Assembly (NCBI RefSeq): GCF_023035875.1
Contig: NZ_CP075391.1
Location: forward strand, 45,608-109,607
Length of the DNA stretch: 64,000 bases
Origin: Borrelia puertoricensis
GTDB taxonomy: Bacteria; Spirochaetota; Spirochaetia; Borreliales; Borreliaceae
Reading direction: 5' to 3'
Both the position numbers and the translations under genes were made by a program. The notes beneath the pieces are model-generated. The model worked only from the letters and a program-made list of their open reading frames with translations, did no database searches and had not been told where the DNA came from. Every line of letters starts with the position of its first letter. The first letter of the stretch is position 1. Positions 17,525-53,425 of this stretch are shown here, piece after piece.

Positions 17525-18142
17525 TTATACAACACCTGAGGTATTACCAGTTGCAAGAGTGGGAGCTCCACTGGCATTAACATAAGTTATGCTACCAACC
17601 CCATGTGTATGACTTTCAAACAATTTACCATTAATATACACATTGCCTTTAAACTCAATACTAGTAGCCTCAATAACTAAAGAGTTAAGAGAAATCCTAG
17701 TATGTTCACCATCATATATCACATTTTTAGAATTAAAAGAAGCATCCTCACATAACACATCCAATTTTTTTGCACTGATGCTCAATTTCTCTACATCAAT
17801 ACCTGCATACTCAAGACTTACTGCATTTAAGATATAAAAATAATGTTTATCGAAATAATTATTATCTCTCTCATTAAAGATATTTATGCCACTTTGAAGC
17901 AAGATTACCCTATCATCTTCCCTAAGTTCAAGTTTTAAATTTGAGATATTGCGACTCTTAATCCTTAAGTCCTCATATTCTTCAATTACAACAATTCCTT
18001 CCTGGGAATTAAAATCAAATTCCTTAATAATTCCAATGCGACAAATAAATACATTATCACGTAAATATTTCTTAGCAGCCTCAAGTGCCAAATCATTACT
18101 TAAACTTCCTAGTCTTCTAGAAATTTCATAAGTTTTGTTCAT
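17525..18142 (-). CDS. Phage baseplate spike (gpV-like; Borrelia DUF777 type)
   Basis: 205 residues. The N-terminal half has an OB-like beta pattern (VFICRIGIIKEFD...GIVVIEEYED...DDRVILLQ), followed by repeating beta strands and a C-terminal ESHTHGVG motif at about 177-184. A H-x-H motif at the tip of a beta-helical needle is typical of metal-binding spike tips of contractile phages (P2 gpV type). It directly follows the hub gene on the same strand. The usual next gene (gp25/W type) is not here but at 53425, 35 kb away. I recall the family as DUF777 but could not check it. Confidence 0.7.
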   Translation of the reverse strand: MNKTYEISRRLGSLSNDLALEAAKKYLRDNVFICRIGIIKEFDFNSQEGIVVIEEYEDLRIKSRNISNLKLELREDDRVILLQSGINIFNERDNNYFDKHYFYILNAVSLEYAGIDVEKLSISAKKLDVLCEDASFNSKNVIYDGEHTRISLNSLVIEATSIEFKGNVYINGKLFESHTHGVGSITYVNASGAPTLATGNTSGVV

Positions 18143-18155
18143 AAATTTATCCTAC

Positions 18156-19082
18156 CTATAAAATATTAGATTCATCATAAAGCTTCAATTTTAATGTGCA
18201 ATCACCCACATTGCTTAAATGAGCACTAGTCTCTTGAACAAAAGCCCTAACAACGCTCCCATATCTATCTATAAATTCAACCCCATCTCCAACTTTAATC
18301 TTATCTGTAAAGAGAAGTTTAGTATTCCAAAAATTAATGGCAGATTGGCCTACAAATCTCACTTCCCTTTGAGGAATGAATAAAAGTGCAAAATCTTCAA
18401 GCTTCTTATAAACTATTTGGCCACCTAGTTTATCAAAATTAATAAAAACAAATTTAGTATCAACCTTAAAGTCCAACTCACCAACATCAACAAAAATCAA
18501 ATGCACATAGTTTTCAATAAGTTTTTCTATAAATTCCTTCAAAGTAAGGGCATAAAAACTCTCACTTATTATGCGACTTCGAGCATCAGGCCCCATGCTA
18601 ATAATGGCTTGACCTGGAAATACCAAATTTATTGCCTCTTCTAAAGATTTACCCTTATAATTTTTAGTATCAAGCTTTTTATTAAAAAACGTATCTTGAG
18701 ACAGGAGATAAACTTCATATTGACAAATAAAATCACCATTTTCAAAATCAAAATCAATAGGAGCACCCAGATATCCAGCCATAACAAATCTGTAAGCAAA
18801 CTCATCCTCATGCGCAAATTTTTTATAGTATATTTTAACAATATCTCCATGCCTTAAAGACTTATTAAAATTTAAAGGCATATTAAACAATTGCAATTGT
18901 GCTTTTTTACATTGCAAAGCACTCATAAGGGAATATTCATTACTAATTACAATATTAATAATAGGTGCCCCATGTTTTGTCTCTATAACAAACTTTGGTT
19001 TCCGATTTTTAATCTCACCCCCAGAACTATAAAACTCTAGTTTAAAATCATATTGAAATAATAACATAACTCCCTTAATCAA
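18156..19082 (-). CDS. Phage baseplate hub protein (gpD-like; DUF693 type)
   Basis: 308 residues, beta-rich, with 'FVIETKHGAPIINIVISNEYSLMSALQCKKAQLQLFN' near the start and 'LRHGDIVKIYY' at about 80. The placement between tail proteins and the spike, and the size, match hub proteins (P2 gpD/T4 gp27 role) that carry the spike trimer. The family is known in cp32 phage-plasmids without biochemical assignment, so the role is inferred from order. Thirteen bases separate it from the spike gene, consistent with one operon. Confidence 0.6.
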   Translation of the reverse strand: MIKGVMLLFQYDFKLEFYSSGGEIKNRKPKFVIETKHGAPIINIVISNEYSLMSALQCKKAQLQLFNMPLNFNKSLRHGDIVKIYYKKFAHEDEFAYRFVMAGYLGAPIDFDFENGDFICQYEVYLLSQDTFFNKKLDTKNYKGKSLEEAINLVFPGQAIISMGPDARSRIISESFYALTLKEFIEKLIENYVHLIFVDVGELDFKVDTKFVFINFDKLGGQIVYKKLEDFALLFIPQREVRFVGQSAINFWNTKLLFTDKIKVGDGVEFIDRYGSVVRAFVQETSAHLSNVGDCTLKLKLYDESNIL

Positions 19083-19139
19083 CTCCTAAAGGTCAATATT
19101 AGTAAACCTAACTACTAACCTTACACATAAATAGTAATA

Positions 19140-20321
19140 TTAATTCTCATCTTCCATGTACTCAGATCTAAAACTAACTGGCTTCTCACCAAGTGGCCTA
19201 ACAATAGGTCTTACAAAATTTGGTCTTATATCACTTCCTGGTCTCTTAAGATCTGGTCTGGTACTACTTGGTCTAATATTACTTTTCTTAACACCACTAG
19301 GTCTTACATTTCTTGCTCTCTGGCTGTCTGGGCTTGAACCTGTCTGCCTTGGGTTTACAGATCTTGCACTTGGACCTCTTGTACTTGACTGTCTTTGACT
19401 TGGCTCTCTTGTACTTGACCCTCTTGCACCTGGCTGTCTTTGATTTGACTGTCTTTGATTTGACTGTCTTTGATTTGACTGTCTTTGATTTGACTGTCTT
19501 TGACGTCCTAAACTCTCATCATTACTCCTAGGAATGGATCTTCTCTCTGCACTCTCACTACTATCTCTAATAACTAGTTCTTCATCATCATAAGCCTCTT
19601 TAACCATATCACTTGGTCTGGGTTGTCTTAAACCTACTTGTCTCTCATACTCACTTCTAGTAATGGACCTTTGAGAACCATACCTTTGACCTGTTTGACT
19701 TGGCTGTCTTGCACTTGACTGTCTTTGATTTGACCCTCTTGCACCTGGCTGTCTTTGACCATTCAAACTACCATTTGCAACACCGAATTTTATACCAAGT
19801 TTTTGCGTAACATAATTTTCCACAAAATCAATCTCTCTAAGCTGCAGTTTAATGAATAACTTGGTATAATCTGGATTTTTAATCCAAGTCTTATTACTAA
19901 AACTCAAAACTCTATGCCTATATTTGTCAAACGCATTTTCCATAGGGATTTCTATTGCCCGTTTAAACCTATTATCAGTCTCAGTAAAAACATCATCATC
20001 AAAATACTGACCATACTCTCTTAAAAATTCATCTTCTACCTGCAGGAAAATATCATCCCTTATCATATTTACAAGACATCTGTAATATCCCTCAAGCTCT
20101 GATATTCTTTGTAAAATTTTTTTAGATTTCACATTTTTATTAACGTCATCAACATTCACTAAAATACCATCTACAACCTCATAACTTGCCTCATAAGCTT
20201 CCTCAATTTCCCTATCAAAATTCCAATTCGTAAAATCAAAAGGCCTTAAAGGTGCCCCATAAAGGTTAAAAAATAAAAATAATAAAAATAATACAATATA
20301 TCTGAATTTAACCATAAACAT
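19140..20321 (-). CDS. Exported Arg/Ser/Gln-rich repeat protein in the tail module
   Basis: 393 residues. The N-terminus MFMVKFRYIVLFLLFLFFNLYGAPLRP looks like a signal peptide cleaved after YGA. Residues about 30-185 form an acidic helical domain. From about 190 the protein is low-complexity and strongly basic: NQRQS units (four in a row), RQPSQ, RGPSAR, RPS and RPIVRPLG. Phage structural genes lie on both sides, yet a cleaved signal peptide and a disordered basic tail are not usual for a tail protein. It could be a lysogenic-conversion protein or a tail-tip factor acting in the periplasm. No family recognised. Confidence 0.7.
   Translation of the reverse strand: MFMVKFRYIVLFLLFLFFNLYGAPLRPFDFTNWNFDREIEEAYEASYEVVDGILVNVDDVNKNVKSKKILQRISELEGYYRCLVNMIRDDIFLQVEDEFLREYGQYFDDDVFTETDNRFKRAIEIPMENAFDKYRHRVLSFSNKTWIKNPDYTKLFIKLQLREIDFVENYVTQKLGIKFGVANGSLNGQRQPGARGSNQRQSSARQPSQTGQRYGSQRSITRSEYERQVGLRQPRPSDMVKEAYDDEELVIRDSSESAERRSIPRSNDESLGRQRQSNQRQSNQRQSNQRQSNQRQPGARGSSTREPSQRQSSTRGPSARSVNPRQTGSSPDSQRARNVRPSGVKKSNIRPSSTRPDLKRPGSDIRPNFVRPIVRPLGEKPVSFRSEYMEDEN
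19435..19494. repeat. 15-base tandem repeat, four copies
   Basis: Four exact copies of TGTCTTTGATTTGAC (plus strand) encode NQRQS on the minus strand within the 19140-20321 gene; a fifth copy is partial. The 15-base unit keeps frame, so slippage would change only repeat number. Confidence 0.95.
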
Positions 20322-20947: not shown

Positions 20948-22273
20948 TTAAGGCATGCGTGAAATTTCACTGCCCATCTTATAGTCATGCATATTATCCC
21001 TCACAGAAACACCTTGCATGTTAAACATTATAGCGTCTCTTAAATCATTAATGGCCCTCTCCATATTAGTAAAATATATACTCAAAGGGTCTATAATACT
21101 CCTCTCTAAATCTATGCCACAAGCCCAACTTAAAAATTCCCTTACCTCTTCTACAAGCATATGCATATCATCACCACGCACATCATTAATTAGCCCAAAA
21201 CTCTCCGGTCTTAAATCACCTGTAACTCGCCTTTGAGAATCAATTAAGTTTGAATCTATACCTACATTCATACCTGAATCTAAATTTGAACTCATATCTG
21301 AATTTACACCTGCATTTACACCCTGATCTAAGTTTAAGCATGCATCACAAAAACGCTGTTTTACTCGATCATCAAAAGTAACTCCCGTACCCAAAAACTG
21401 AGAAAAATTCTCTCTATTCCCTACATCATTCTTAAGAGAAGATAAAACACCTTCCTTAAATAAATCATAAACAACAGATACAGCTTCAGAATTAGAATCA
21501 AACTGCCCATTAGTTCCCTTTAGAGAACTTGCAAGTTTAACTGTATCAAAAAGAGCATCAGGTGTACTCTCAACCTTAGATAATAACGATTTAAAACCAC
21601 AGGTCTTACGAATAAAATCATTAATGTCCACTTGATTATCAAACTTACCCGTGCTTGCAAGCATGTCCTCAATCCTATTCCTCTCAAAATCACTATAAGT
21701 TATATCATTAATTGTGCCCTTGTTTGCAATATTATTCCCTTTTAACTTAAAATTATTAGAAACTACCATAGAATCTTCATCAAAATCGCTTAAAGATTTA
21801 AAAAAATTTAAGTCTAGCATATTTGTATCTAAATTCAAAAGTGAACCTGATTTTGAACCTGCATCCAAACCACCAAATAAAGGCAAACTTAAATCAGCAT
21901 CAGGCTTAAGCTTAGACGGCAACTTTAAATCTGAAAACATAACCCCAATTGCATTATTATCTCTCCCCGCACTCTTAACATCTTCTTTAAAATCTGAAAT
22001 TTGATTTGAAGCTTTACGGGTCTTAAGTTCTTGCAAACCAATATCAATTCTTGGTAACTCAACTAATAACTCACTTATCAACCTATCATCTAAAATATCT
22101 TCAGATTTAAAACCACTAACTATCGGCTCAATTAATACAGATGCCAGCTGTTCCTCTAAAAACTTATCACTTCCTGCAAATTTTAAATGTTCTTCTAAAT
22201 CGCTACTTAAATCAAAATCATAAAATAAATCTTGGCTAATATCATCAAGTTTATCTAAATTCATAAACAACAT
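20948..22273 (-). CDS. Phage tail protein in tape-measure position
   Basis: 441 residues, acidic and Ser/Asp/Leu-rich, without leader. A degenerate repeat (GVNSDMSSNLDSGMNVGIDSN) lies at about 325-345. It stands where tape-measure proteins stand in contractile phages, after sheath, tube and small chaperone-like genes and before the hub. However, it is short and lacks obvious membrane segments, so another tail role is possible. The stop of the small upstream gene is only 3 bases before its start. Confidence 0.5.
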   Translation of the reverse strand: MLFMNLDKLDDISQDLFYDFDLSSDLEEHLKFAGSDKFLEEQLASVLIEPIVSGFKSEDILDDRLISELLVELPRIDIGLQELKTRKASNQISDFKEDVKSAGRDNNAIGVMFSDLKLPSKLKPDADLSLPLFGGLDAGSKSGSLLNLDTNMLDLNFFKSLSDFDEDSMVVSNNFKLKGNNIANKGTINDITYSDFERNRIEDMLASTGKFDNQVDINDFIRKTCGFKSLLSKVESTPDALFDTVKLASSLKGTNGQFDSNSEAVSVVYDLFKEGVLSSLKNDVGNRENFSQFLGTGVTFDDRVKQRFCDACLNLDQGVNAGVNSDMSSNLDSGMNVGIDSNLIDSQRRVTGDLRPESFGLINDVRGDDMHMLVEEVREFLSWACGIDLERSIIDPLSIYFTNMERAINDLRDAIMFNMQGVSVRDNMHDYKMGSEISRMP

Positions 22274-22963: not shown

Positions 22964-23383
22964 TTACCCCCTCTCAATTTCGCAATTAATTGCATGAATT
23001 ATAAAATTTACAGTATCATTATTATTTGCATAAGTCCTACTAGGCACTTCAGAAAAAAATGCACTATTAGAAATAATTTTAAGCCCCATCTGGTCATTAA
23101 ACACCAATGACCTAAGCTTATCCTTTTTGGAAGTCGAATAGTAAAACTGCTCATTACTAAGTTTAGTTAAAATTTTATAATCAAATGAACCTTTGGTAAG
23201 CTCTAAACTAAATATATGAATAATAGTTCTAGGATCTCTAAAGCTTGGAATTGGTACATTCTTCTCTTCAGTGCTGGCAATAGCCATAACATTAGGAGAG
23301 GTTGAATATTGTAACTTTCCCCTATCTATGAGCATTCCTGCAAAACTAAAAAATACTAAATCCAATGAATAATAATCTTTCAT
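22964..23383 (-). CDS. Phage tail tube protein (DUF1463 type)
   Basis: 139 residues. It follows the sheath gene with a TAATG stop-start overlap at 23383, and a sheath-then-tube pair is near universal in contractile phages. The protein is beta-rich ('IHIFSLELTKGSFDYKILTKL', 'DKLRSLVFNDQMGLKIISNSAFFSEVPSRTYAN'), matching the compact tube fold in size. I infer the inner tube. DUF1463 is from memory. Confidence 0.6.
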   Translation of the reverse strand: MKDYYSLDLVFFSFAGMLIDRGKLQYSTSPNVMAIASTEEKNVPIPSFRDPRTIIHIFSLELTKGSFDYKILTKLSNEQFYYSTSKKDKLRSLVFNDQMGLKIISNSAFFSEVPSRTYANNNDTVNFIIHAINCEIERG

Positions 23384-25484: not shown

Positions 25485-25849
25485 GTCTTAATATCTTCTA
25501 CAAGATTACTAAAAGCAACGCAAAAATCCTTATTTAAAGATTCATTATGCAAAACATAATCAGAATATTCCACAGATATTTCACCCAGTCGCTCAGACTT
25601 AACTTTATTACAATCAAAATGCAAAAGTTTGCCTCTCTTTTTAAGTTCACATCCAAGAAAATAATATATAAGCAAAAATATCTTACTCATATTTAAATCC
25701 CCAAGTCCTAAACCTTTGCTAATCAAAATATTCTCAAGCAAATTCACATAGACATTAAATTCGCTAAATTCCAGATCTTCAGACTTAAGCATCAGTAAAT
25801 CTAATACTTTGGTATAAATCTTACCCAAATCCTCATTATCCATGATCAA
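25454..25849 (-). CDS. Phage head-tail adaptor protein
   Basis: 131 residues, helical, no leader. It lies just after the capsid gene with a 4-base stop-start overlap, the usual place of the helical adaptor that docks on the portal. Sequence similarity to any adaptor is not obvious to me, so this is a positional call. Confidence 0.5.
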   Translation of the reverse strand: MIMDNEDLGKIYTKVLDLLMLKSEDLEFSEFNVYVNLLENILISKGLGLGDLNMSKIFLLIYYFLGCELKKRGKLLHFDCNKVKSERLGEISVEYSDYVLHNESLNKDFCVAFSNLVEDIKTCKRTLIGLV

Positions 25850-26775
25850 GTCCAGCTTATCTTAAGTCTAAGTATTGTCTCTTGACTTGCAATGATGCTT
25901 CCAATAGAAAAATCTAGAAAACTAGTCCTAAAATTACTACTCGACATCTGTGTATATGCATTTAAAACCGGAGGATGACCATCTTTTAATACCAAAAGCT
26001 TGGAACTTCTTGGATAAATTAACATCTCATCATCTAATAAATTAGTAGTCTCAAGCTCAATATCAGCATCATTATTTATTGAACTTAAAGAGTCATATAA
26101 CATGTCCCTGTATGAATAATTATTATTATGTAGTCTCTCAAGTAAGAGAGCTTTAACTTTAGGTGTCGTTAATACTTTAAAAGGAACTCTTCTCTCATCT
26201 TCCAAATTGATCTTACCCAATTCAAAATTGCAAGCCTTTATTAGATCTAAAGCTTGTGTTACTTTAACAGCTCTGTCTATTTGACCTGGAATATTAAGTA
26301 ACCCATACATGGTCTCCCTATTAGCATCATCAACAAGAAGAGTGCGACGATTCTTCTTACCACCTGATAAGCACAAACCACCTCTTAAGTAATGTGCACT
26401 TAAAAGTTTATGTATCTCAGATAATGAATACTTAAGTCCGTCTCTCATATTAATGTTATTAATTGCCTGCACATCTAATTTCCCATCAGGTGCATAATAT
26501 GTAAAGGCATACTGAAATGGTAAATAGTTAACAAGAACCACTTGCTTCTTAAACTTGATAGTAGCTACAGTACTAAAATCATTTACCCTAAGCGTCGGTT
26601 GATCTACTATATTTGAATTCCACTTTATAACCTTTTCGCTTGCAAGCGATATATCACCACTCTCTATTTGCTCATTATCAAAAAAATGATAATATTCAGG
26701 AATTGGTTTATCAAGGGACATAGAATCCCTAATAGTATTTATAAATTCTAAATTATTAAATAGACTTTCACTCAA
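25846..26775 (-). CDS. Phage major capsid protein
   Basis: 309 residues. Gene order portal, scaffold-like, decoration-like, then this gene, with connectors after it, points to the shell protein. Length fits an HK97-fold capsid. Notable segments are 'IKWNSNIVDQPTLRVNDFSTVATIKFKKQVVLVNYLPFQYAF' in pieces near residues 45-90, 'VDDANRETMYGLL' near 150, and a C-terminal beta run 'DFSIGSIIASQETILRLKISW'. No protease site is evident. Confidence comes from order and size. Confidence 0.6.
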   Translation of the reverse strand: MSESLFNNLEFINTIRDSMSLDKPIPEYYHFFDNEQIESGDISLASEKVIKWNSNIVDQPTLRVNDFSTVATIKFKKQVVLVNYLPFQYAFTYYAPDGKLDVQAINNINMRDGLKYSLSEIHKLLSAHYLRGGLCLSGGKKNRRTLLVDDANRETMYGLLNIPGQIDRAVKVTQALDLIKACNFELGKINLEDERRVPFKVLTTPKVKALLLERLHNNNYSYRDMLYDSLSSINNDADIELETTNLLDDEMLIYPRSSKLLVLKDGHPPVLNAYTQMSSSNFRTSFLDFSIGSIIASQETILRLKISWT

Positions 26776-29428: not shown

Positions 29429-29608
29429 TTAAAAATCATATTTTTTAATAAAATTATCAGTTTCCATAATAAATTCATCACCATAAACAGAAATTAGAGT
29501 AATTTTAATTTTAGGCTTCTCTTTAAGTTTTTCAACAAGCCTTTTCTTTAGATGAATAGTAAACGTATTACTTACTGGAACTGGAAATATAACTCCTAAA
29601 AATCGTTT
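29429..29608 (-). repeat. 180-base direct repeat, copy A
   Basis: Near-identical to 30133-30312, with four differences seen by eye. It covers the 3' ends of two neighbouring genes encoding the C-domain. Confidence 0.9.
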
Positions 29609-41391: not shown

Positions 41392-41424
41392 CCTTGTCAA
41401 TTTCAAAATTTGAAATTGACAAGG
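41392..41424. terminator. Near-perfect 33-base palindrome after the Alp-like gene
   Basis: CCTTGTCAATTTCAAA and its complement flank one central base, 28 bases after the stop at 41363. No T tract follows, so it may protect the mRNA end or be a protein-binding site. Confidence 0.7.
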
Positions 41425-41449
41425 CTGGCACAAAATTTCACATAGATTA

Positions 41450-41483
41450 AAATAAATGCGCATTTAATGCGCATTTATTTTTT
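41450..41483. terminator. Bidirectional intrinsic terminator
   Basis: AAATAAATGCGCAT (41450-41463) and ATGCGCATTTATTT (41467-41480) form a 14-base-pair stem with a 3-base loop followed by T residues on the plus strand. Confidence 0.8.
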
Positions 41484-41737
41484 ATAACTCATTATTCTAT
41501 GTAACTTAAAATTAGTAACGTCTCTTAAAAAAATCCCTTAATAAAGGGAGGTATAAACTTCAATATCTAACAACCATGCTAATTACAATTAGATAACAGC
41601 AAGACTCACAAATATTAATAACTCTACAGCATGCTTTAATTTAAAAGCACTAAGTTAAAACATTTAAAGCCTTAATATTTCCATTTAGTGCTTTAACTTA
41701 ATTCCTTAACTACTGAATAAAAAAACTAATTATCACT

Positions 41738-42661: not shown

Positions 42662-43121
42662 CAAACTTCTCCCACCTCATATATTGTAATAATAACAATT
42701 ATACTATTACAATACATAAGCACATAAATGCATGCAATATACTAAACTACATAAAATGCAATGTACTTCAAACCATCTGAGATCGTTTTATCCACAATGA
42801 TAAAACCTTCACAAATTAATTAAAGACTTTCTTCTGTTCTGTTATTACGCATTACACTTGTTAAATATTTACTCTCAGGGTTTCATTATTCATTAATATG
42901 GAATACTAAAAGTTTAAAGAAATACATCTAAAAGAATCTAATCTTAATTTTAAGAAAAATATGTGTATATGAAACAAACTGAACTATAATTTTTAAAAAA
43001 AGTCACACTTTCAATGATTATTCCATTAAAGTGTACTTGAAAAATTACGTAAGCTGCAGTGTTATGGCTGTGGCTTTTAATTTACACTTTTCATACTAAT
43101 TTATACTCAAATTCAATAATC
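42662..43121. other. Intergenic between cargo block and terminase
   Basis: No gene is visible. It holds the second copy of ATTAATATGGAATAC (42892-42906). This is the right boundary of the segment that separates terminase from portal, so an insertion junction would be here, but no flanking repeat was recognised by eye. Confidence 0.4.
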
Positions 43122-45177: not shown

Positions 45178-45476
45178 CAAAAAGGAGAAAAGTACAATTA
45201 AAAAATTAATTCAAATTAAGCTTCATTTCCAAAACCATAAACTTTAATATTAGTTATAATCTTAACATAAAATACGGGTTTAAAATAGAGAAATTAACAA
45301 TAAAATTTATATAAGCTACATCTTAAAATGTGTCACATTTCTGATTCAAAATCAAACATAAAAAATCAACAAAACACTTCAAAAATTCCATAATAAATTT
45401 CTCTTCTCAACCAGGAGCTTTAAGCCCCCTTAAGAGAATCTATGAAAAAATATTATTATTGGTATACAAAAAAAAC

Positions 45477-45524
45477 AAAGGGTTTATTAGAAACTCTGGC
45501 CTCAAAGTCCCTAATAAACCCTTT
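45477..45524. terminator. Large hairpin downstream of PF49-like gene
   Basis: AAAGGGTTTATTAG (45477-45490) pairs with CTAATAAACCCTTT (45511-45524), a 14-base-pair stem around a 20-base loop, about 400 bases beyond the PF49-like stop at 45924. It may end the maintenance transcript. Confidence 0.6.
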
Positions 45525-45923
45525 AAGGTAACAGGTCCTTATATTAAGAGTGACACATTGCATGTCAATCTGTACTAACTATAATATATAACAATTTTAA
45601 ACATTTTGCAAATATTTTTTAAAGTTTTTTTTGAAAAAAACAAAAACAAAAAAAATTGGTTATACAAAAATTCCTATTTACCTAATTTACTTCAAAAAAA
45701 TCAATTATATATCATAACTAAACACTTAATCATTCTTCAATAAACTTTAAAAAATTATGCCTTAAAATATATCTTAAAATAAGAGTTCTAAAATAAATGT
45801 TTTAACATAAAAACTTTTGTTATTATATGCTAGGTTCATTCCTAAAACCTTCAACCTCCCCATATCATTAAATTATTTGCAAAAAAACCTTTAGAAATAA
45901 ATCCAACGTCATAAATCTATTGT

Positions 45924-46469
45924 CTATTTTTTCCCCTTTTTTGAAGACTCAAACTGATTTATTATTTTTGCTAAAAATTCTTTTTCATCCGAGAAAACTC
46001 TCTCTAAGAGAAAACTTGTAAGCTTGGCATTACCTTTATAAAAGGCATAGGCATCTGGACATTTAAGCTGAAACCTTAAAGGTCTTAACGGATTTTGTTT
46101 AGATTTTTTTATATTAACACCTTCTTTATTTCTCAACAAAAAGATAGTCCCATTAATTCCATTATTAATAACATACTTTTCCTCCACAATTCCCTCTTCA
46201 ATCGCAGTAGCTATCTTTAAATATTTATAAGTTTGAGTTCTAGCAAGTCTGTAATCTTTGGCAAAATCATCAAAATTGGCATAATTATCAAGTTTGTAAT
46301 ACTCATTATCCTTAATCTCTTTTAAAACTTTCATTGCCTCAATTTTACAAAAAATCTCTTTTTGAAAATTAATTTTTAATCTTTCTTTAAGCCTATTATA
46401 GTGAATAGATATCTGTTCTTCAGGTGTAATCTCTTTAGCTAAATTCCTCTTATTAACCTCTATGCCCAT
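45924..46469 (-). CDS. Plasmid maintenance protein, PF49 type
   Basis: 181 residues from the ATG at 46469, which follows AAAGGAGGGTTAGAA. The central motif 'YANFDDFAKDYRLARTQTYKYLKIATAIEEG' is typical of PF49 proteins encoded after ParA in Borrelia partition loci. The segment looks like a DNA-binding helix pair, so PF49 may serve as the ParB-like or plasmid-specific partner. Last gene of the four-gene cassette, 57 bases after parA. Combinations of the four families set plasmid compatibility in Borrelia. Confidence 0.85.
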   Translation of the reverse strand: MGIEVNKRNLAKEITPEEQISIHYNRLKERLKINFQKEIFCKIEAMKVLKEIKDNEYYKLDNYANFDDFAKDYRLARTQTYKYLKIATAIEEGIVEEKYVINNGINGTIFLLRNKEGVNIKKSKQNPLRPLRFQLKCPDAYAFYKGNAKLTSFLLERVFSDEKEFLAKIINQFESSKKGKK

Positions 46470-46526
46470 TTCTAACCCTCCTTTGCTTTGTACGTACACT
46501 AAGTGTACGTAAGTTATAACTTTAGC

Positions 46527-47279
46527 TTAAGCCATAATGCCTATCTTATTCATTAAAGTTAAAAGCGTATCTTGGTACTCCCTTATGTAATCTTTACTTA
46601 GATCAAAAACATCATTCCTAGCAATTTTCCTATTTAAATCCTCCCTCTCAGATATTGTACCTAAAAAATTATCATTTTCTTTCAAAATATTTAACAATTC
46701 CTTGTGTGTATTATTCTTTTTAAATTTGGTATTAAGTAAATAAATAGGAGCTTTTATAGATAATTTCTCTATGAAAAAATTAAACAGATCTAAACTCTCG
46801 ACTGCCCATTTCTCTGCCGTAATTGGTACAATTATATAATTGCTACATACTAAAGCATTAGTTAAAGTAAAATCTAAGCTAGGATTAGTATCAAGTATTA
46901 TGTAATCATACTCAAAACCCAATAACTTTAACTGTTCCTTTAATCTGAATTCCTTGTATGGAATCGATTCTGAATTAAATTTGTGCAAAGTTAAATAACT
47001 TGGTATTAAATCTAAATTACTACTAATATTTATAATAGCATTATCAATATGAAGATTAGATATTAAAACTTCGTATATGTTCCGATTAAATAAATCTACC
47101 CCACATTCTTTTATTATTTTAAAATAATAACTGGTCGTTGATGCTTGTGTGTCTATGTCTATAATTAACACCTTAGAAGACTGCGATAAAAGTGTTGCAA
47201 ATATCAGACTCGTAGTACTCTTACCCACCCCACCTTTAATTGATGCTACTGTAATTACTTTTGTCTCTTTTGTATCCAT
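46527..47279 (-). CDS. parA: ParA-type plasmid partition ATPase, PF32
   Basis: 250 residues. The deviant Walker A KGGVGKST with signature lysine is at 15-22 (VASIKGGVGKSTTS); Walker A' 'VLIIDIDTQAS' at about 40; Walker B-like 'YDYIILDTNPSLDF' at about 115. The ATPase drives plasmid segregation. PF32 subtype decides incompatibility, so this protein identifies which Borrelia replicon type the locus came from. Overlaps the PF50 gene by 25 bases. Confidence 0.95.
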   Translation of the reverse strand: MDTKETKVITVASIKGGVGKSTTSLIFATLLSQSSKVLIIDIDTQASTTSYYFKIIKECGVDLFNRNIYEVLISNLHIDNAIINISSNLDLIPSYLTLHKFNSESIPYKEFRLKEQLKLLGFEYDYIILDTNPSLDFTLTNALVCSNYIIVPITAEKWAVESLDLFNFFIEKLSIKAPIYLLNTKFKKNNTHKELLNILKENDNFLGTISEREDLNRKIARNDVFDLSKDYIREYQDTLLTLMNKIGIMA

Positions 47280-47821
47280 CTTGGAATGATACCCCCTTCT
47301 GGCAATTTTTTCCCATAAAATGCATAAAGTTCCCGCTCTAATTCTAGGAGTATGCTTAGTAAAGTCTGATAGTAGGAACTCTCAATCTTATCTTTTTTTA
47401 ATAAATTATGCAGCCCACTTAAATAACAAAAAACCCCACCTTTTTTAAACCTAAATTCTATGTACTCACATTTCCTTAAAGTATAAGTCTCTCTTTTATT
47501 AAAATTCTTTACCAAAAAGGCCTTGTCTAATTTCTTAATTCCATAATAAATACCAAAAAAATTATCATCGTCTCTGATAGAAAATAAATGAAACATGCTT
47601 ATATCCTCTATGTTAAAAATTCCTCTAAGAGAGATGAAAAACTTAGTTGGTTCATTCTTACTTATTCCAAATGTATAAAAATCGTTGAAAATCTTAGTAT
47701 GATATATCCTACGGTTGTTAATCTCTTCAACTTTAGAGAAAATATTATGTTTTCCCTTTTGCCTATTGTTGGGATCTATCTCCTTTTTTTTCTGCTTCAA
47801 TAACTCTAGTAAAGCCACCAT
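47255..47821 (-). CDS. Plasmid maintenance protein, PF50 (DUF226) type
   Basis: 188 residues. Contains 'FYTFGISKNEPTKFFISLRGIFN', 'FFGIYYGIKKLDKAFLVKNF' and 'CEYIEFRFKKGGVFCYLSGLHNLL', the conserved core of the Borrelia PF50/DUF226 family. Gene order PF57-PF50-PF32-PF49 is conserved in Borrelia plasmids. Molecular role not established. The 3' end overlaps parA. Confidence 0.85.
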   Translation of the reverse strand: MVALLELLKQKKKEIDPNNRQKGKHNIFSKVEEINNRRIYHTKIFNDFYTFGISKNEPTKFFISLRGIFNIEDISMFHLFSIRDDDNFFGIYYGIKKLDKAFLVKNFNKRETYTLRKCEYIEFRFKKGGVFCYLSGLHNLLKKDKIESSYYQTLLSILLELERELYAFYGKKLPEGGIIPRWIQKRQK

Positions 47822-47850: not shown

Positions 47851-48960
47851 TTACTTTATTATTTTAAGCAATTCGTAATAATATGTATTATCAACTACTT
47901 TGCTATACTTTAACTCATCTTTGGCGTTAATAAATTTCTTTAATGCAGGTATTAATACGCCAATATCTACCTTATACCTCAACTGTTCTAATAATATACT
48001 AAAAATATTGTTTTTTATATCATCCGCTTTGATTTCTTGCTTCTCACAAATCTTGGCATTGATTTTGATTTTCCTTATTAGACGATTTAAATCTTCATAT
48101 TTGTCTTTTTCTATGATAAAGTGGGGCTTTTCTTTATAAGCTTCGTATATTTTACTGATTTCTTCTCTTAATATTGCTTCATCGTAATTTTGTCCCTTAA
48201 GTTCTCTTTCCCTCACATTCAGTATTTCTTCAAGTTCTCTTGCCTTGAGCTCTTTTTTATTACTCTTGTTTTGAAAACTTCTATTTAGGTATCCCCTTTC
48301 CTCTAAAAAGGCTCTAATACACCCTTCTTGACCCTTCTTAATTTCATCTTTTATTAGAGATAAATCCTCTCTATTGAGTGCTCTTAAACCCTTCTCATGC
48401 CTTTTTATTTCCCTTATAAGTTCTATTTTTCTTGTCCTATCTATTTTTAAGTTTAATAAAAAGAAGGGAAGATCAATCTTGAAATTGCATTTACTTATGT
48501 ATTTAATCAGTATGTCTCTTTCCCTCTTATTATTATTATTACTATTAATACACTCCCATTTTAGACTCCCATTTTCTTTTTCGTATTTAGCCACCCTTTC
48601 TTTAAACCGGTCTATCTTTTCTTTTCTTATATTCCTGAAATGTGAGTTTATCTTAGCATGACACTCTTTCTTTGAGTATTGTAGAGTATAATAAACTTCA
48701 CTTCCGCATTTTTTGCCTAAGTGTTTGCAGTAGTTGCGTGTGATTTTAAACTTTTTCTCAAGTGCGTATAGATAATTCTGTAATGTTTTAATCTTGACTG
48801 TTTTTTGATCGTTTCTCTTTAAGTTGCCATTGAAAAAATATAAAATGTTTTTTTGTGTGTATTGATTAAGTTTTAAGTTAATGAAATTAAGTGTGGATAT
48901 GAGTACAATCAAATTGTATTGATATCTATTGGTTTTACCCTTTATGCTTTTGATTTTCAC
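47851..48960 (-). CDS. Plasmid replication/maintenance protein, PF57/62 (Borrelia ORF-A) type
   Basis: 369 residues, very basic. N-terminus 'NRYQYNLIVLISTLNFINLKLNQYTQKNILYFFNGNLKRNDQ' then 'KTLQNYLYALEKKFKITRNYCKHLGKKCGSEVYYTLQYSKKECHAKINSHF' in pieces is the ORF-A hallmark region. PF57/62 proteins are required for replication of Borrelia plasmids, so this is the probable initiator. First gene of the cassette. The 450 bases upstream hold its promoter and a terminator hairpin. Confidence 0.88.
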   Translation of the reverse strand: MKIKSIKGKTNRYQYNLIVLISTLNFINLKLNQYTQKNILYFFNGNLKRNDQKTVKIKTLQNYLYALEKKFKITRNYCKHLGKKCGSEVYYTLQYSKKECHAKINSHFRNIRKEKIDRFKERVAKYEKENGSLKWECINSNNNNKRERDILIKYISKCNFKIDLPFFLLNLKIDRTRKIELIREIKRHEKGLRALNREDLSLIKDEIKKGQEGCIRAFLEERGYLNRSFQNKSNKKELKARELEEILNVRERELKGQNYDEAILREEISKIYEAYKEKPHFIIEKDKYEDLNRLIRKIKINAKICEKQEIKADDIKNNIFSILLEQLRYKVDIGVLIPALKKFINAKDELKYSKVVDNTYYYELLKIIK

Positions 48961-49432: not shown

Positions 49433-49810
49433 TCACTTTTTTAATTTACTATATTTTTTGTATACCGCAGAAGCTATGGGTTTTGTATTGTTTATGTAAT
49501 GTTGTAAGTGTTTTATGTTTTCTTGAATGGCTTCTAATGTGTGTTCTGCTCTTAAAACAGTGGCATCTAATAGATTAAATGTTGGAAAATTTTGATCCCT
49601 AAATTTTTGCTTAGTGCGAGTTAAAAATGTTTCTAGATACAGTGCATAACTTGCAAGTTTTGCTTCATATATGCTTAAGTTTTTAAGTGTAAGTTCGGTA
49701 GGTGTTTTAGGCTCTTCTGGTAGTGTGGCTATTGAAGTGCAACTAAATATCATACTAAATATAATGAATTGCAATAAAATTATTAGGTTTAGAATTAGTT
49801 TTTTGTTCAC
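49433..49810 (-). CDS. Lysis-module lipoprotein, spanin-like candidate
   Basis: 125 residues. It starts with GTG (complement of 49808-49810) overlapping the TGA of the upstream gene as GTGA; AAGGAGGTAAAAA precedes it. Leader MNKKLILNLIILLQFIIFSMIFSC (Cys24); then a Pro-containing linker (LPEEPKTPTE) and a long helix. A small lipoprotein with a Pro linker and helix, translated with holin genes, is what an outer-membrane spanin looks like, but no inner-membrane partner is obvious. cp32 has a lipoprotein gene at the same place. Confidence 0.65.
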   Translation of the reverse strand: MNKKLILNLIILLQFIIFSMIFSCTSIATLPEEPKTPTELTLKNLSIYEAKLASYALYLETFLTRTKQKFRDQNFPTFNLLDATVLRAEHTLEAIQENIKHLQHYINNTKPIASAVYKKYSKLKK

Positions 49811-50202
49811 TTTTTACCTCCTTTTTTGTCTACTCTCTTATATCCTTTCATATCCTGTTCTAGTTCTTCTTTGAGTAATTGGGCCTTAGTTGACATAAGT
49901 TTATTGCGTTCAAGTCGTAATTCTTCAATTAAAGAAGGATTGGCGTCATTATTAATTGCATCAGTAAGCCTCATAATCTTATTAAGTATGGTTTCAAGTT
50001 CAAGAATGATTTGTTTGTGTTCTTGAACTTCCATTTTTTGCAGTGAATTTAAGTAAATGGTGTTCATGTATTTGTAAATATCAATGGCCTTTTTTATGCC
50101 TATCTCAAAAATTTGTTCATTTGGGGTATCACTATATCCAAGAAATTCCATTAGATTTTGAAGAAAAATTATTCCTAAATTGGTGTTGTTTTTGTTTAAC
50201 AT
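49807..50202 (-). CDS. blyB: BlyB-like accessory lysis protein
   Basis: 131 residues, soluble, helical, no leader. N-terminus 'NLGIIFLQNLMEFLGYSDTPNEQIFEIGIKKAIDIYKYMNTIYLNSLQKME' and a charged C-terminus with 'MSTKAQLLKEELEQDM' fit BlyB of cp32, which stabilises the BlyA holin. Gene order BlyA, BlyB, lipoprotein supports the call. The end is coupled to the lipoprotein by GTGA overlap. Confidence 0.75.
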   Translation of the reverse strand: MLNKNNTNLGIIFLQNLMEFLGYSDTPNEQIFEIGIKKAIDIYKYMNTIYLNSLQKMEVQEHKQIILELETILNKIMRLTDAINNDANPSLIEELRLERNKLMSTKAQLLKEELEQDMKGYKRVDKKGGKK

Positions 50203-50505: not shown

Positions 50506-51612
50506 CTATACTTTATTAAGATATGGAATATCTTGATTTAAATCATTGTTTAATAAGGCATAGTCTAATTTATACCATCCTGTAAGAATTGGTTGTGTTA
50601 TATTGTGTTGTTTTCCACTGTAAAAATAGAAAGTTGTATGTTGTGATGTATTATTTTCTGAAAATTTAAGGTTGATCCTTTTTGTCATATTAACATTAGT
50701 ATCTGTAGAACTTTTGATATCAAGGTTTATGTTAAGGTAGATGTATTGATCTTTCAAGTTTCTTGGGAATCTTAATTCTACTTGGTCACCTTTAATGTCT
50801 ATATTTAGTGACTGTTCAGCAAATTCGTTATAAGAATAAAAAGTATCACTTGTGGATAATATTCCCCAATATTTAAAATTTGCAGGAACTCCTTGTAAAT
50901 AATAGTGTGTTGTTAATCTTTTTAAGGCACCTCTGCTTCTACTGAATGCAATAAATTCTAGTTCTTTATCTTCGAAATTACTAGATCCTAGTAATTGTGC
51001 TGCAATGTTTAATTCTTTGTAAAGATTGTTCTTCTTTATGTAAAGCTCACCTATTGCATTATTTACTCTTTGGAAATCATCTATTCTGGCAAAAGTCTTT
51101 GTTGCATATTCTTTAAGTTTTTCTAAATTAGTGATTTCTGTAAAAATTTCTTTTAAATTCTCAATTAAGGTTTGAAATTCAACTAACTCAAATTCTCGTT
51201 TATTTGGATTGTAGGTTGATATTTGGCTTGATTTTACATTATTTCCAGATATCTTTAAATCTTCAATTAATGTTTCCTTAAGTTTGTTAAGGAGATCATT
51301 AAATTCAATACTATTTGGTTCTGTTTTGAGTCCTATTAGCTTAGAGATGATTTTTAAATACATTTTCTCTATGTGAGATTCGTATTCAATCAGCTCTTTA
51401 GATATTATCTCTCTTATGACCTTTTTGAAATATTCAAATCCTCCGTAGAATGTATCTTGTTTTATTTGTTCAAGTAAATTTTTGTATGTAATTGCATAAG
51501 TTTCTTCAACAATATCGTCAATGGGAATTAGGTCGTTTTCATTGACTTTGGTTTTTCTGTTAAAATCTTTTATTTGTATTATTTCTTCTGTTTCTTTATT
51601 TTCATAGTCCAT
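50506..51612 (-). CDS. Phage tail fibre/distal tail protein (DUF735 type)
   Basis: 368 residues. The N-terminal 200 residues are helical and Glu/Lys-rich; the C-terminal part is beta-rich ('FEDKELEFIAFSRSRGALKRLTTHYYLQGVPANFKYWGIL', 'TSQHTTFYFYSG'). Position after the gpI-like gene and before the holin is where tail-fibre genes lie. It may determine adsorption to host cells. DUF735 from memory. Confidence 0.55.
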   Translation of the reverse strand: MDYENKETEEIIQIKDFNRKTKVNENDLIPIDDIVEETYAITYKNLLEQIKQDTFYGGFEYFKKVIREIISKELIEYESHIEKMYLKIISKLIGLKTEPNSIEFNDLLNKLKETLIEDLKISGNNVKSSQISTYNPNKREFELVEFQTLIENLKEIFTEITNLEKLKEYATKTFARIDDFQRVNNAIGELYIKKNNLYKELNIAAQLLGSSNFEDKELEFIAFSRSRGALKRLTTHYYLQGVPANFKYWGILSTSDTFYSYNEFAEQSLNIDIKGDQVELRFPRNLKDQYIYLNINLDIKSSTDTNVNMTKRINLKFSENNTSQHTTFYFYSGKQHNITQPILTGWYKLDYALLNNDLNQDIPYLNKV

Positions 51613-51652
51613 ATAATCTCCTTATTTTTTTAAACAATATAATATTTGAATT

Positions 51653-52252
51653 TTATTTTATTTCTTTATCATAAGTGTCAAAAATTTTAATAGTTCTTCC
51701 AGCAGGAATTAGGGATTTTATAAATTCATATATTGAGTTTTTAAAGTCCTTTGGAATATAGTTAGATGCAAGTTTTTTAAATTTTCCTTTGTGTTTAACT
51801 ATAATAATTTTTAATTTTCCATTAATTTTGCCAGCTATTTTAAATTTAATAGGTGACCTAATATTATCAATTAATTTGATAATAATCTCTCCAGGTGTAT
51901 TTGGATTTATGGTTACCTCAACTCTTGCATGCAAAAATGCCTTGAAGAGTAAATGAAAACTCTCATCTGTGCCTATTGATTTTATTGCAAATATTAATGC
52001 TTTAAGAGAATTGATTAGGTCTTTTTTAAGTCCTTTTTTTAAGTGAAATGCATTAAATAGTGATAGCATCATCAATGCAATGTATCTTGAATTGATGCTT
52101 TCTTGTAAATTAATTGTGTTAAAATTTTTAAGTAGTTCTTTAAGCTCTGCTAATAGCTGTTTTTTGAAGTTAAGTTCGCTTTGTATGATTTTTGCAATCT
52201 GTGTATTTTGTAAAAATTGTGGTATTGTTTTCATTACCTTATTCTTTGTCAA
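51653..52252 (-). CDS. Phage baseplate protein, gpI-like position
   Basis: 199 residues. It overlaps the J-like gene by 14 bases. 'SLFNAFHLKKGLKKDLINSLKALIFAIKSIGTDESFHLLFKAFLHARVEVTINPNTPGEIIIKLI' carries a 'GT-E-S...F-A-F' region then a beta segment, like P2 gpI tail proteins. No leader. Call based on order W-J-I and this weak pattern. Confidence 0.6.
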   Translation of the reverse strand: MTKNKVMKTIPQFLQNTQIAKIIQSELNFKKQLLAELKELLKNFNTINLQESINSRYIALMMLSLFNAFHLKKGLKKDLINSLKALIFAIKSIGTDESFHLLFKAFLHARVEVTINPNTPGEIIIKLIDNIRSPIKFKIAGKINGKLKIIIVKHKGKFKKLASNYIPKDFKNSIYEFIKSLIPAGRTIKIFDTYDKEIK

Positions 52253-53099
52253 TTATGAGTCTTAAATTTTCATCAAAAGATATCAGTTCATTTTCTTTAA
52301 TTTCAACATCAGTATTGAAATTAAACCCAGATTCTTCAATTTCTGTTATTTTAGTCTCTAAGTTTTTTTTTATGCAAACACCGATGCGCATGCTTTTAAT
52401 TCCTTTAATTGTGCTTACAGGACTTAAAAAATCTTGGTGCCTTAATGCAATGCCCATATCTTTATATTTATCTTTTATAATTTTTTTGTAAATTTCTTTT
52501 ATTTGTCCAGCTACTTCCTTATACATTGCCTTTGTTTCGGTTTTGTATAGTACTTTTAAATATGCGTATTTAATTATTCCTAAGCTAAACTTATATGTCT
52601 TTTTTTGCCCATTTTTGTTTAAAAACTCAAGTTCTATTTGTCCCTGAAATGCTGTTCCGCTTGGGGCAGTATAATATATTGCTTTCCAAATATTCATCTG
52701 TGTTTGATTATCAATGATTTGGTTTTCTCTGTACTCAGTTTTAAATATTATGTGAATTGCAATCGTTCCTGATGAACTTATGATATTTGCATATTCTATA
52801 TGTGGAACTGCTAGTAGTGCTTGTTTGATTGCTTCGTAAGTTGAACTTTTAGGTATGCTTAGGGATTCTTGTAAACTTTTAAAGTATTCCCCTCCTTCTT
52901 TAAGTGTTGCAAATAGTTCATTTAAAACTTTAATTATCTCTATATCAATTGCAGAACTTGGGTAGTTTATTATGTCAAATATTGAGTTGTCTTTTATCGA
53001 AATATTATATTCTTGTTTAAGTATTTCTTTTTTTATATTTTGTATCTCTTCTATTGATTTTGTAATAACCCCAATTTCTTCGTCAAATATTATTTTCAT
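52239..53099 (-). CDS. Phage baseplate J-like protein (DUF276 type)
   Basis: 286 residues. 'IWKAIYYTAPSGTAFQGQIELEFLNKNGQKKTYKF' shows the SGT...G element of baseplate J proteins; the C-terminus ends 'TDVEIKENELISFDENLRLIID', again J-like. Overlaps the gp25-like gene by 4 bases and the next gene by 14. Forms the baseplate wedge. Borrelia DUF276 from memory. Confidence 0.7.
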   Translation of the reverse strand: MKIIFDEEIGVITKSIEEIQNIKKEILKQEYNISIKDNSIFDIINYPSSAIDIEIIKVLNELFATLKEGGEYFKSLQESLSIPKSSTYEAIKQALLAVPHIEYANIISSSGTIAIHIIFKTEYRENQIIDNQTQMNIWKAIYYTAPSGTAFQGQIELEFLNKNGQKKTYKFSLGIIKYAYLKVLYKTETKAMYKEVAGQIKEIYKKIIKDKYKDMGIALRHQDFLSPVSTIKGIKSMRIGVCIKKNLETKITEIEESGFNFNTDVEIKENELISFDENLRLIIDKE

Positions 53100-53425
53100 A
53101 TATTGTATTCCATACTTAGCGTGTCCCCTGCTAGGAAAAATTGTAATGTTATTTTTTGATTTTCTTTTTTTATTCGGATATTTAATATGTCAATATTGAG
53201 ACTTCTTAAAGTGTTTGCAAAAAAAGTTTTGATATCTTCTTCTTTTTGTGTCTTTAAGAGTTTTAAAAAAAAAGTAAAGTTAAGACCGTAGTTTTTATTA
53301 TAAAGACTACCAATGGGTGTTTTTAGGTATAATAATAATTTTTGCTTTTGTTCATCAAGCCCATCTACTATTTTTAAATCATTGTCAAAAATTATATTAA
53401 ATTCATCATCTATTTTAATATCCAT
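53096..53425 (-). CDS. Phage baseplate gp25/W-like protein
   Basis: 109 residues. 'FDNDLKIVDGLDEQKQKLLLYLKTPIGSLYNKNYGLNF' is the gp25 pattern (D-x-x-x-V-x-G-x-x-x-x-x-Q-x-x-x-x-x-L-x-T-x-x-G-x-x-x-x-x-x-x-Y-G). gp25 has lysozyme-like ancestry and links sheath to baseplate. In cp32 and P2-like order it should follow the spike gene, but that gene is at 17525-18142. This is the other side of the permutation breakpoint. Confidence 0.75.
   Translation of the reverse strand: MDIKIDDEFNIIFDNDLKIVDGLDEQKQKLLLYLKTPIGSLYNKNYGLNFTFFLKLLKTQKEEDIKTFFANTLRSLNIDILNIRIKKENQKITLQFFLAGDTLSMEYNI

What the first reader, a model, noticed from the sequence alone, without database searches (positions are those of the whole stretch)
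17525..53425. Complete cp32-like phage-plasmid built into a linear plasmid in circularly permuted form
All phage and maintenance modules are on the minus strand. In transcription order they are gp25-J-I-fibre-lysis (53.4-49.4 kb), PF57-PF50-PF32-PF49 (49.0-45.9), terminase small and large (45.0-43.1), cargo, then portal to spike (29.4-17.5). Joined as a circle this is the cp32 order. The only break in the baseplate module is between the spike (17525-18142) and the gp25-like gene (53096-53425), which should be neighbours. This is what one crossover between a circular phage-plasmid and a linear plasmid at that point would give. Key genes look intact (terminase catalytic residues, holin, sheath, portal), so packaging of linear-plasmid DNA is possible.
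Basis: partly seen in the sequence, partly recalled or inferred. Interest (0 to 1): 0.82.

Follow-up and report, generated by a model that had tools for sequence, protein, structure and literature searches.

The report
Ancient phage genome inside linear plasmid
Most genes of a tailed bacterial virus, opened at one point of its circular map, form the core of a linear plasmid shared by Lyme, relapsing-fever and reptile spirochetes; the virus genes are under selection, but what they still do is untested.

Summary
In the window (a relapsing-fever Borrelia "F6" megaplasmid, contig C13, 109,607 bp) phage and maintenance genes run in cp32 order, opened between DUF777 (spike) and DUF2634 (gp25/sheath initiator). 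All 28 gene families lie in the same order with the same break in 9 of 9 fully covered F6 and lp54 blocks (relapsing-fever, reptile, Lyme); a three-gene marker order holds on one contig in 30 of 31 genomes with this terminase type (the other is split over contigs). In 25 of 27 gene trees F6+lp54 separate from cp32, so the modules are not mosaic. Terminase distances track chromosomal GyrA (r = 0.99, 25 genomes), weakly within Borreliella. Intact spike-gp25 junctions exist on co-resident cp32s, whose terminase is 47-50% identical. C13 has no match to cp32 integrase, ERF/RecT or other early genes. Packaging, capsid and most tail genes are under purifying selection. Already in print: lp54 as an old cp32 x linear plasmid recombinant, lp54 DNA in phiBB-1 virions, F6 related to lp54. 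Packaging of the whole 110 kb is unlikely. Boldest open reading: a vertically inherited, GTA-like particle.

The parts
53096..53425 (-). gp25-like sheath initiator (DUF2634); first gene after the break
   Evidence: Pfam Sheath_initiator 30.4 bits (cut-off 32.9); PHROG baseplate 4.9e-6; lp54 51%, B31 cp32-1 42%
52239..53099 (-). baseplate J-like (DUF276)
   Evidence: lp54 58%, cp32-1 41%
51653..52252 (-). baseplate I-like (DUF735)
   Evidence: lp54 67%
50506..51612 (-). fibre-like (DUF685 family by homologue annotation)
   Evidence: lp54 36%, cp32-1 39% over 112 aa
50227..50400 (-). BlyA-family holin, 57 aa
   Evidence: Pfam Holin_BlyA 2.5e-10
49807..50202 (-). BlyB-family holin accessory; one copy, cp32-1 has two
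49433..49810 (-). BBA14-family lipoprotein
   Evidence: lp54 54%
47851..48960 (-). PF57 plasmid maintenance; only match on C13
   Evidence: Pfam Borrelia_orfA 9.6e-77
47255..47821 (-). PF50 (DUF226 family); only match on C13
   Evidence: lp54 76%
46527..47279 (-). PF32 ParA; only match on C13
   Evidence: lp54 80%
45924..46499 (-). PF49 partition; only match on C13
   Evidence: lp54 70%
45441..45611 (-). unannotated conserved RNA-like element ending in a long terminator-type stem; found on F6/lp54, not in the cp32 loci scanned
   Evidence: lp54 copy described as 'Sequence #5' in PMC2674063
44477..45034 (-). small terminase subunit candidate with HTH
   Evidence: weak Pfam Phage_terminase 0.0096, below cut-off; lp54 35%; position
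43122..44474 (-). large terminase
   Evidence: PHROG 3e-24; motif residues invariant
29429..42664 (.). cargo: 12 ORFs (three BptA-family, one BB0158-family among the 11 scanned), not part of the cp32 order
   Evidence: dN/dS 0.29-1.37 against B. turicatae
28148..29353 (-). portal
   Evidence: PHROG 4.4e-11; lp54 59%, cp32 49-53%
25846..26775 (-). major capsid candidate (BBA40 orthologue by position and homology)
   Evidence: lp54 69%, cp32 30-32%; capsid role of the cp32 counterpart assigned from PMC11008901 passages and recall
   Evidence: Pfam DUF787; lp54 51%
22964..23383 (-). tube-like (DUF1463)
   Evidence: PHROG virion structural 5.6e-5
20948..22273 (-). positional counterpart of cp32 DUF759 (possible tape measure)
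19140..20321 (-). BBA52-like gene between DUF792 and DUF693: in 10 of 10 F6/lp54 replicons, in 0 of 9 cp32s whose DUF792-DUF693 stretch was held
18156..19082 (-). hub-like (DUF693)
   Evidence: 42-45% to lp54 and cp32
17525..18142 (-). central spike (DUF777); last gene before the break
53754..53781 (-). terminator-like hairpin upstream of the gp25 operon
   Evidence: found in 4 of 5 relapsing-fever F6
9127..13411 (-). spike-side arm marker: nrdF-nrdE-nrdI-thyX
   Evidence: same side in B. turicatae, miyamotoi, anserina, turcica, RT5S; lp54 has thyX on that side

Best explanation
The block is the genome of an ancient sister lineage of the cp32 phages. Its circle was opened once, between the spike gene and the gp25-like gene, and became the core of a linear replicon in a common ancestor of the Borreliaceae. 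It has since been passed down mainly with the host, as lp54 in Lyme spirochetes and as the F6 megaplasmid in relapsing-fever and reptile spirochetes. The phage supplied the only partition/replication gene set found on this plasmid, so the linear plasmid is in effect the altered phage-plasmid rather than a host plasmid with a guest. Opening split the late operon in two; the gp25-J-I-fibre-lysis part now starts its own unit. The virion genes are still under purifying selection, so they most likely still yield particles or lend proteins to cp32 particles, packaging part-length DNA. Shown: order, break, single lineage, distance match to the host, selection. Inferred: single event, opening mechanism, own transcription unit, particle making, what is packaged.
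For: 28-family order identical in 9 of 9 fully covered F6/lp54 blocks (B. turicatae only partly covered there). DUF276-TerL-DUF777 in the open order on one contig in 30 of 31 genomes with F6/lp54-type TerL. Trees: 25 of 27. BBA52-like gene in 10 of 10 F6/lp54, 0 of 9 cp32s with that stretch held. F6/lp54 TerL against GyrA protein distances r = 0.986 over 25 genomes, 0 of 2000 permutations. thyX on the spike-side arm in all six plasmids where that arm was read plus the window; gp25 lies 3-11 kb from the record end in lp54, B. miyamotoi, B. turcica, RT5S and the window. dN/dS against B. turicatae: TerL 0.17, portal 0.18, capsid 0.18, tube 0.06, gp25 0.12. One partition set and no integrase or recombinase match on all of C13. 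lp54 capsid proteins and lp54 DNA in virion preparations (PMC11008901, passages).
Against: gp25 and PF57 trees do not recover the split and BBA14 does so with support 28. By topology F6/lp54 TerL shares 13 of 22 splits with GyrA and cp32 TerL 6 of 11, so topology does not set the two apart; cp32 TerL distances also track GyrA (r = 0.70 over 14; 0.84 within Borrelia). Within Borreliella the F6/lp54 match is weak (r = 0.48, 57 of 2000 permutations). Genes nearest the break differ between clades. G022 holds two lp54-type TerL copies on one contig, in opposite directions. The element can decay: G010 keeps the arm and hub gene but has broken spike, DUF792, tape-measure and DUF1322 genes; RT5S, G020, G026 and G030 have interrupted genes. 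In induced B. burgdorferi only cp32 and lp28-2 copy number rose significantly (PMC9839762, passages).
Confidence: 0.82

Rival explanations
1. Single crossover: a circular phage-plasmid recombined once with a pre-existing linear plasmid at spike|gp25, and the linear plasmid's own partition genes were later lost.
For: cp32s do integrate into linear plasmids: B. finlandensis SV1 lp54 holds a cp32-11 (PMC5870499; TerL, DUF276 and DUF777 of both kinds on one 83,377-bp contig). Both arms carry non-phage genes. lp54 is said to come from cp32 x linear plasmid (PMC11008901).
Against: One partition set on C13. In SV1 the integrated cp32 keeps spike and gp25-side genes within 1 kb, so that site is no obvious hot spot. 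No long matching flanks at the two edges.
Confidence: 0.42
2. Telomere capture, as in N15: a resolvable telomere was inserted between spike and gp25 of the circle, making a linear phage-plasmid; the arms were added later.
For: One partition set, at its phage position. gp25 lies within 3-11 kb of the record end in lp54, B. miyamotoi, B. turcica, RT5S and the window. N15 is recalled, not tested.
Against: I did not search for telomere traces at the edges. Arms are long and gene-rich; one has thyX in all clades read. In B. anserina, turicatae and coriaceae gp25 lies 21-71 kb from the end.
Confidence: 0.45
3. Recent insertion of a co-resident cp32 into this plasmid.
For: Permuted order and intact genes.
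Against: Same break in 30 of 31 genomes; co-resident cp32 TerL 47-50% identical and in the other tree half; inverted PF cluster in the three co-resident cp32s read.
Confidence: 0.02
4. Dead prophage: virion genes are kept only because they sit on an important plasmid.
For: No integrase or recombinase match on C13; decay in G010, RT5S, G020, G026 and G030, some perhaps assembly error.
Against: dN/dS below 0.6 in 29 of 29 phage and maintenance genes against B. coriaceae, and at or below 0.38 in 28 of 28 comparable genes between two lp54s. The 12 cargo ORFs are at 0.29-1.37 against B. turicatae and 0.40-0.80 against B. coriaceae, so the ranges overlap in part. TerL transcript up in blood in B. 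turicatae (PMC4741519).
Confidence: 0.15
5. GTA-like particle: the domesticated block packages random DNA fragments and is inherited with the host, not by infection.
For: One copy in 30 of 31 genomes, distance match to the host, selection, no mobility genes matched, replicon of 72-194 kb in relapsing-fever species against about 30 kb for cp32. Chromosome and low-frequency plasmid reads average about 8 kb in phiBB-1 preparations (PMC11008901).
Against: All such packaging may be done by cp32. No particle is known from F6. cp32 shows a similar share of host-matching splits.
Confidence: 0.2

Closest known systems
lp54 of Borreliella (Lyme spirochetes)
   Same: All 28 gene families in the same order with the same break; thyX on the spike-side arm; BBA52-like gene; RNA element after PF49.
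   Different: 54 kb, not 110 kb; carries ospAB, dbpAB and complement-regulator-acquiring proteins as cargo and arm genes; 63% TerL identity.
F6 megaplasmid family (B. turicatae lp158, B. miyamotoi lp72 and others)
   Same: The window is a member: 93% DNA identity over 17-30 kb to B. turicatae, same order.
   Different: Mainly cargo and arm content and length.
cp32 / phiBB-1 phage-plasmid
   Same: Homologous head, tail, lysis, packaging and partition genes in rotated order.
   Different: Circular, multi-copy, spike-gp25 joined, with integrase, ERF recombinase and erp/mlp/bdr; separate tree half; four cp32 spikes aligned lack the HTHG...TG tip.
N15-type linear phage-plasmid (recalled, not tested)
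   Same: Linear replicon whose map is a permutation of the phage map.
   Different: No telomerase gene recognised in the block; resT lies on cp26-type plasmids (PMC10481545); long gene-rich arms.
Gene transfer agents (recalled, not tested)
   Same: Passed down with the host, selected, replicon too long to be packed whole.
   Different: Carries partition genes and a cp32-type terminase pair; no particle shown.

Membership tests
F6/lp54 linear plasmid family | F6/lp54-type PF32 and TerL branch | tested here: met
   TerL split support 100, PF32 90
F6/lp54 linear plasmid family | Linear with hairpin telomeres | not testable with these tools
   Window ends at the end of contig C13; relatives are annotated linear
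F6/lp54 linear plasmid family | Open block order gp25...spike with thyX arm on spike side | tested here: met
cp32 phage-plasmid | Circular ~30-kb replicon with joined spike-gp25 | tested here: not met
   109,607-bp contig, spike and gp25 35 kb apart
cp32 phage-plasmid | Groups with cp32 in virion gene trees | tested here: not met
   25 of 27 trees separate it; gp25 and PF57 do not
cp32 phage-plasmid | Integrase, ERF recombinase, erp/mlp/bdr region | tested here: not met
   no homologue on C13 at E 0.01; a weak match of lp54's Mlp-annotated gene to two cargo ORFs
Active phage / phage-plasmid | Makes particles that pack its DNA | not testable with these tools
   needs virion DNA; lp54 DNA is reported in phiBB-1 preparations (PMC11008901)
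Gene transfer agent | Descent with the host | tested here: inconclusive
   r = 0.986 to GyrA over 25 genomes, but 0.48 within Borreliella, and 13 of 22 shared splits against 6 of 11 for cp32
Gene transfer agent | Packs random host DNA | not testable with these tools
   -

The most novel reading that the evidence does not exclude
The F6/lp54 block is a domesticated particle system of the Borreliaceae, passed down with the host and separate from the cp32 phages. It keeps head, tail, lysis and packaging genes but has no recognisable integrase or recombinase, and its replicon (72-194 kb in relapsing-fever species) has outgrown any cp32-sized head. It would therefore act like a gene transfer agent, moving fragments of plasmids and chromosome, and could account for part of the non-cp32 DNA and the lp54 capsid proteins already seen in phiBB-1 preparations.
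Probability: 0.2. Interest if true: 0.85.

Novelty: new member of a known kind. Interest (0 to 1): 0.46.

Why it matters
It turns the open remark that lp54 'may be a prophage' (PMC11008901) into a wider, testable statement with parts: one opening before the clades split, nearly always one copy, the same break, and selection on the virion genes. It gives relapsing-fever biology concrete targets (TerL, capsid, spike of F6) for asking whether these bacteria make particles, and a reason why phage genes sit on plasmids that matter for the tick-host cycle.

Tried and rejected
Recent insertion of a resident cp32: rejected. Module mosaicism: rejected, with gp25 and PF57 trees not recovering the split and BBA14 at support 28. 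Inversion of the block between Lyme and other plasmids: suggested by BBA07-like, S2/P23, BBA57-like and P27-like genes lying on opposite sides, dropped because thyX is on the spike side wherever that arm was read. Excision by direct repeats: little support. Rfam identity of the RNA element: none above a gathering score. Solved-structure homologue of DUF777 by sequence: none. Fold of the capsid candidate: not obtained.

Papers: passages only for PMC10580987, PMC4741519, PMC9158201, PMC6945570, PMC5870499 (plus section 36 whole), PMC3303823, PMC11008901, PMC12018966, PMC9839762, PMC2674063, PMC7224557, PMC10481545. Miller 2013 (PMC3754566) is not held and was not used. Searches behind 'not seen in print'; 'gene transfer agent' + Borrelia + lp54 gave 0 papers.


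Full report
WHERE. The window is G000:C13:45608-109607, the right 64 kb of a 109,607-bp contig. Region 17-30 kb is about 93% identical to the B. turicatae, parkeri, venezuelensis and Ca. B. fainii large plasmids and 77-84% to those of B. hermsii, anserina and miyamotoi. It is an F6 megaplasmid of a relapsing-fever Borrelia; the species was not determined.

OBSERVATION. Reciprocal protein mapping to B31 lp54, B31 cp32-1, three cp32 contigs of the same genome and B. turicatae F6 gives one consistent gene list. Of 42 annotated cp32-1 genes, 29 have a window homologue at E<=0.01, on 26 distinct genes; 13 do not: one hypothetical, DUF759, RevA, Mlp, ERF, Bdr, DUF244, DUF261, integrase, ErpA, ErpB, DUF643 and DUF603. 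Two of these, DUF759 and DUF603, have positional counterparts in the window (possible tape measure and TerS), linked through other family members. None of the 13 queries, nor relapsing-fever versions of integrase, RecT/ERF and DUF244, matches the left 45.6 kb of C13, and PF57, PF50, PF32 and PF49 occur once each on C13. So packaging, head, tail, lysis and partition are full, and the mobility and early region is missing.

THE BREAK. DUF777 and DUF2634 are neighbours in four annotated cp32s (gaps 29-74 bp) and in the three co-resident cp32 contigs fetched; here they sit at opposite ends of the block (17,525 and 53,425). DUF2634 is a sheath initiator/gp25-type protein by a just-subthreshold Pfam hit and a PHROG hit. 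DUF777 folds poorly (pLDDT 53.5), but brings phage baseplate or puncturing proteins as the six best PDB matches, at TM about 0.25; most further hits among the top 50 are generic OB-fold proteins. In P2 the order spike-W(gp25)-J-I is the rule (recalled), so the joined state is taken as ancestral and the open state as derived.

HOW OLD. I wrote each replicon as a string of 28 families. Nine of nine fully covered linear replicons (window, B. coriaceae, anserina, miyamotoi, turcica, RT5S; lp54 of B31, afzelii, yangtzensis) read 1-28 without exception; B. turicatae reads 13-28 in the part then held, and the rest of its order was seen in its annotation. Two Lyme cp32s read as a rotation for the families found; five of five relapsing-fever cp32s have the PF cluster inverted. 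Over 36 Borreliaceae genomes, 33 hold some TerL and 31 the F6/lp54 type (13 Borrelia, 18 Borreliella; in G020 and G030 it is broken). DUF276-TerL-DUF777 lie in the open order on one contig in 30; G006 is split over contigs. Thirty of the 31 show one copy; G022 shows two on one contig in opposite directions. Of the other five genomes, three are single-contig assemblies without a TerL match (G007, G011, G012), G017 has neither F6-type TerL nor nrdE and G010 has a remnant (below). A 'Ca. tachyglossi' F6-type DUF777 exists too; its gene order was not read under that name.

ONE LINEAGE. 27 gene trees with up to 20 replicons: the split F6+lp54 | cp32 is recovered in 25, with UFBoot >=95 in 21 and >=80 in 24; BBA14 has 28; gp25 and PF57 do not recover it. 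A 28th family, the BBA52-like gene between DUF792 and DUF693, is in all 10 F6/lp54 replicons and in none of the 9 cp32s whose stretch was held (the tenth, turcica C5, was not held there).

DESCENT. F6/lp54 TerL against chromosomal GyrA protein distances: r = 0.986 over 25 genomes (0 of 2000 permutations), 13 of 22 splits shared; within Borrelia r = 0.92 (13 genomes), within Borreliella r = 0.48 (12 genomes, 57 of 2000). cp32 TerL, one copy per genome: r = 0.70 over 14, 0.84 within Borrelia, 6 of 11 splits shared. So distances favour descent with the host for F6/lp54 more than for cp32, while shared splits do not tell the two apart. PMC10481545 (passages) reports host-like PF32 trees for lp54/RPF4/F6. 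The spike-side arm has thyX, with nrdIEF outside Lyme species, wherever that arm was read (window; B. turicatae, miyamotoi, anserina, turcica, RT5S; B31 lp54). The gp25 end is 3-11 kb from the record end in lp54 (5.3 kb in B31), B. miyamotoi, B. turcica, RT5S and the window, and 21-71 kb in B. anserina, turicatae and coriaceae. So one linear chassis is likely, though genes next to the block differ between clades.

SELECTION (pairwise, own script). Window against B. turicatae dN/dS: tube 0.06, gp25 0.12, spike 0.15, TerS 0.15, J 0.16, TerL 0.17, portal 0.18, capsid 0.18; several tail and head genes are at 0.35-0.66, and the possible tape measure (0.82) and DUF1322 (1.29, few changes) are higher. 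Against B. coriaceae 29 of 29 phage and maintenance genes are below 0.6. Between two lp54s 28 of 28 comparable genes are at or below 0.38. The 12 cargo ORFs lie at 0.29-1.37 against B. turicatae and 0.40-0.80 against B. coriaceae; best-hit pairing in these repeated families may join paralogues. So the virion genes do something. Counter-cases: G010 retains the arm and an intact hub gene, but spike, DUF792, possible tape-measure and DUF1322 are broken, its BBA52-like ORF is short, and no F6-type TerL, portal or capsid was found (the contig ends there); RT5S DUF276 is interrupted; G020, G026 and G030 have broken genes, possibly assembly error.

SPLIT OPERON. In relapsing-fever F6 a hairpin with T-run lies 338-369 bp upstream of gp25 in 4 of 5 (not found in B. 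turicatae by an exact-stem scan), with a conserved stretch just before the gene in 5 of 5; no such hairpin was found in two reptile and three lp54 plasmids. This fits a second late unit that starts at gp25 (inference).

MECHANISM. Either a crossover with a linear plasmid whose partition genes were later lost, or capture of a telomere by the circle, gives this map. One partition set on C13 and the closeness of gp25 to an end in several plasmids fit the second; arms with thyX fit the first. The cp32 inside the lp54 of B. finlandensis SV1 keeps its spike and gp25-side genes together, so spike|gp25 is not an obvious preferred site. I hold the two nearly even.

FUNCTION. phiBB-1 preparations hold lp54 capsid proteins and lp54 DNA, and chromosome and low-frequency plasmid reads average about 8 kb (PMC11008901, passages). 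In a strain with over-expressed RpoS only cp32 and lp28-2 copy number rose significantly (PMC9839762), against a classical inducible lp54 phage. B. [quoted passage not shown] Whole F6 cannot fit a head made for a ~30-kb cp32 (inference), so at best parts are packaged. A GTA-like role is the boldest reading left open.

KNOWN OR NEW. Known: lp54 as an ancient cp32 x linear plasmid recombinant and possible prophage (PMC11008901); [quoted passage not shown] F6 related to lp54 with intact phage genes (PMC10580987); shared PF32 descent (PMC10481545). PMC5870499 section 36 still said relapsing-fever plasmids share little with Lyme plasmids beyond partition genes, scattered genes and cp32-like plasmids. 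Not seen in the passages and searches listed: the full 28-family colinearity, the fixed spike|gp25 opening across clades, and the per-gene trees and dN/dS.

Noticed in passing
window 45441-45611 (-): About 170-bp unannotated RNA-like element downstream of PF49: near-identical in relapsing-fever F6, about 80% in lp54, in 121 plasmid records at one place each (60 listed and seen), not found in ten loci covering seven cp32s. The lp54 copy is 'Sequence #5' of PMC2674063; its presence in F6 and reptile plasmids was not in the passages I saw.
   Followed up: partly
window 17525-18142: F6/lp54 spikes end in a histidine-bearing tip that the four cp32 spikes aligned lack; the outer end of the two phage lineages' spikes differs.
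   Followed up: partly
G000 contigs C8, C9, C10, C11: Contigs with two cp32 regions each (C8, C9 and C11 are 59-61 kb); C11 looks like a dimer, the others like pairs of different cp32s; several further TerL copies in this genome are broken.
   Followed up: no
relapsing-fever cp32s (C5, C7, C11, L075, L077): Partition cluster inverted relative to Lyme cp32 and to F6/lp54.
   Followed up: partly
window 16730-17320: Conserved 196-aa gene next to the spike (dN/dS 0.13), related to BBA07 beside gp25 in lp54 and to the tandem array at 55.9-60.6 kb on the other side.
   Followed up: partly
window 29429-38261: Three BptA-family genes within a fast-evolving cargo array between terminase and portal.
   Followed up: no
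L153/L154 (G010 C2:37590-42459): Decaying F6 phage block in a Borrelia grouping with B. turcica by GyrA: hub intact, neighbours broken.
   Followed up: partly
G017: Borrelia with GyrA 99% like the window but no F6-type terminase and no nrdE; plasmid lost or not assembled.
   Followed up: no
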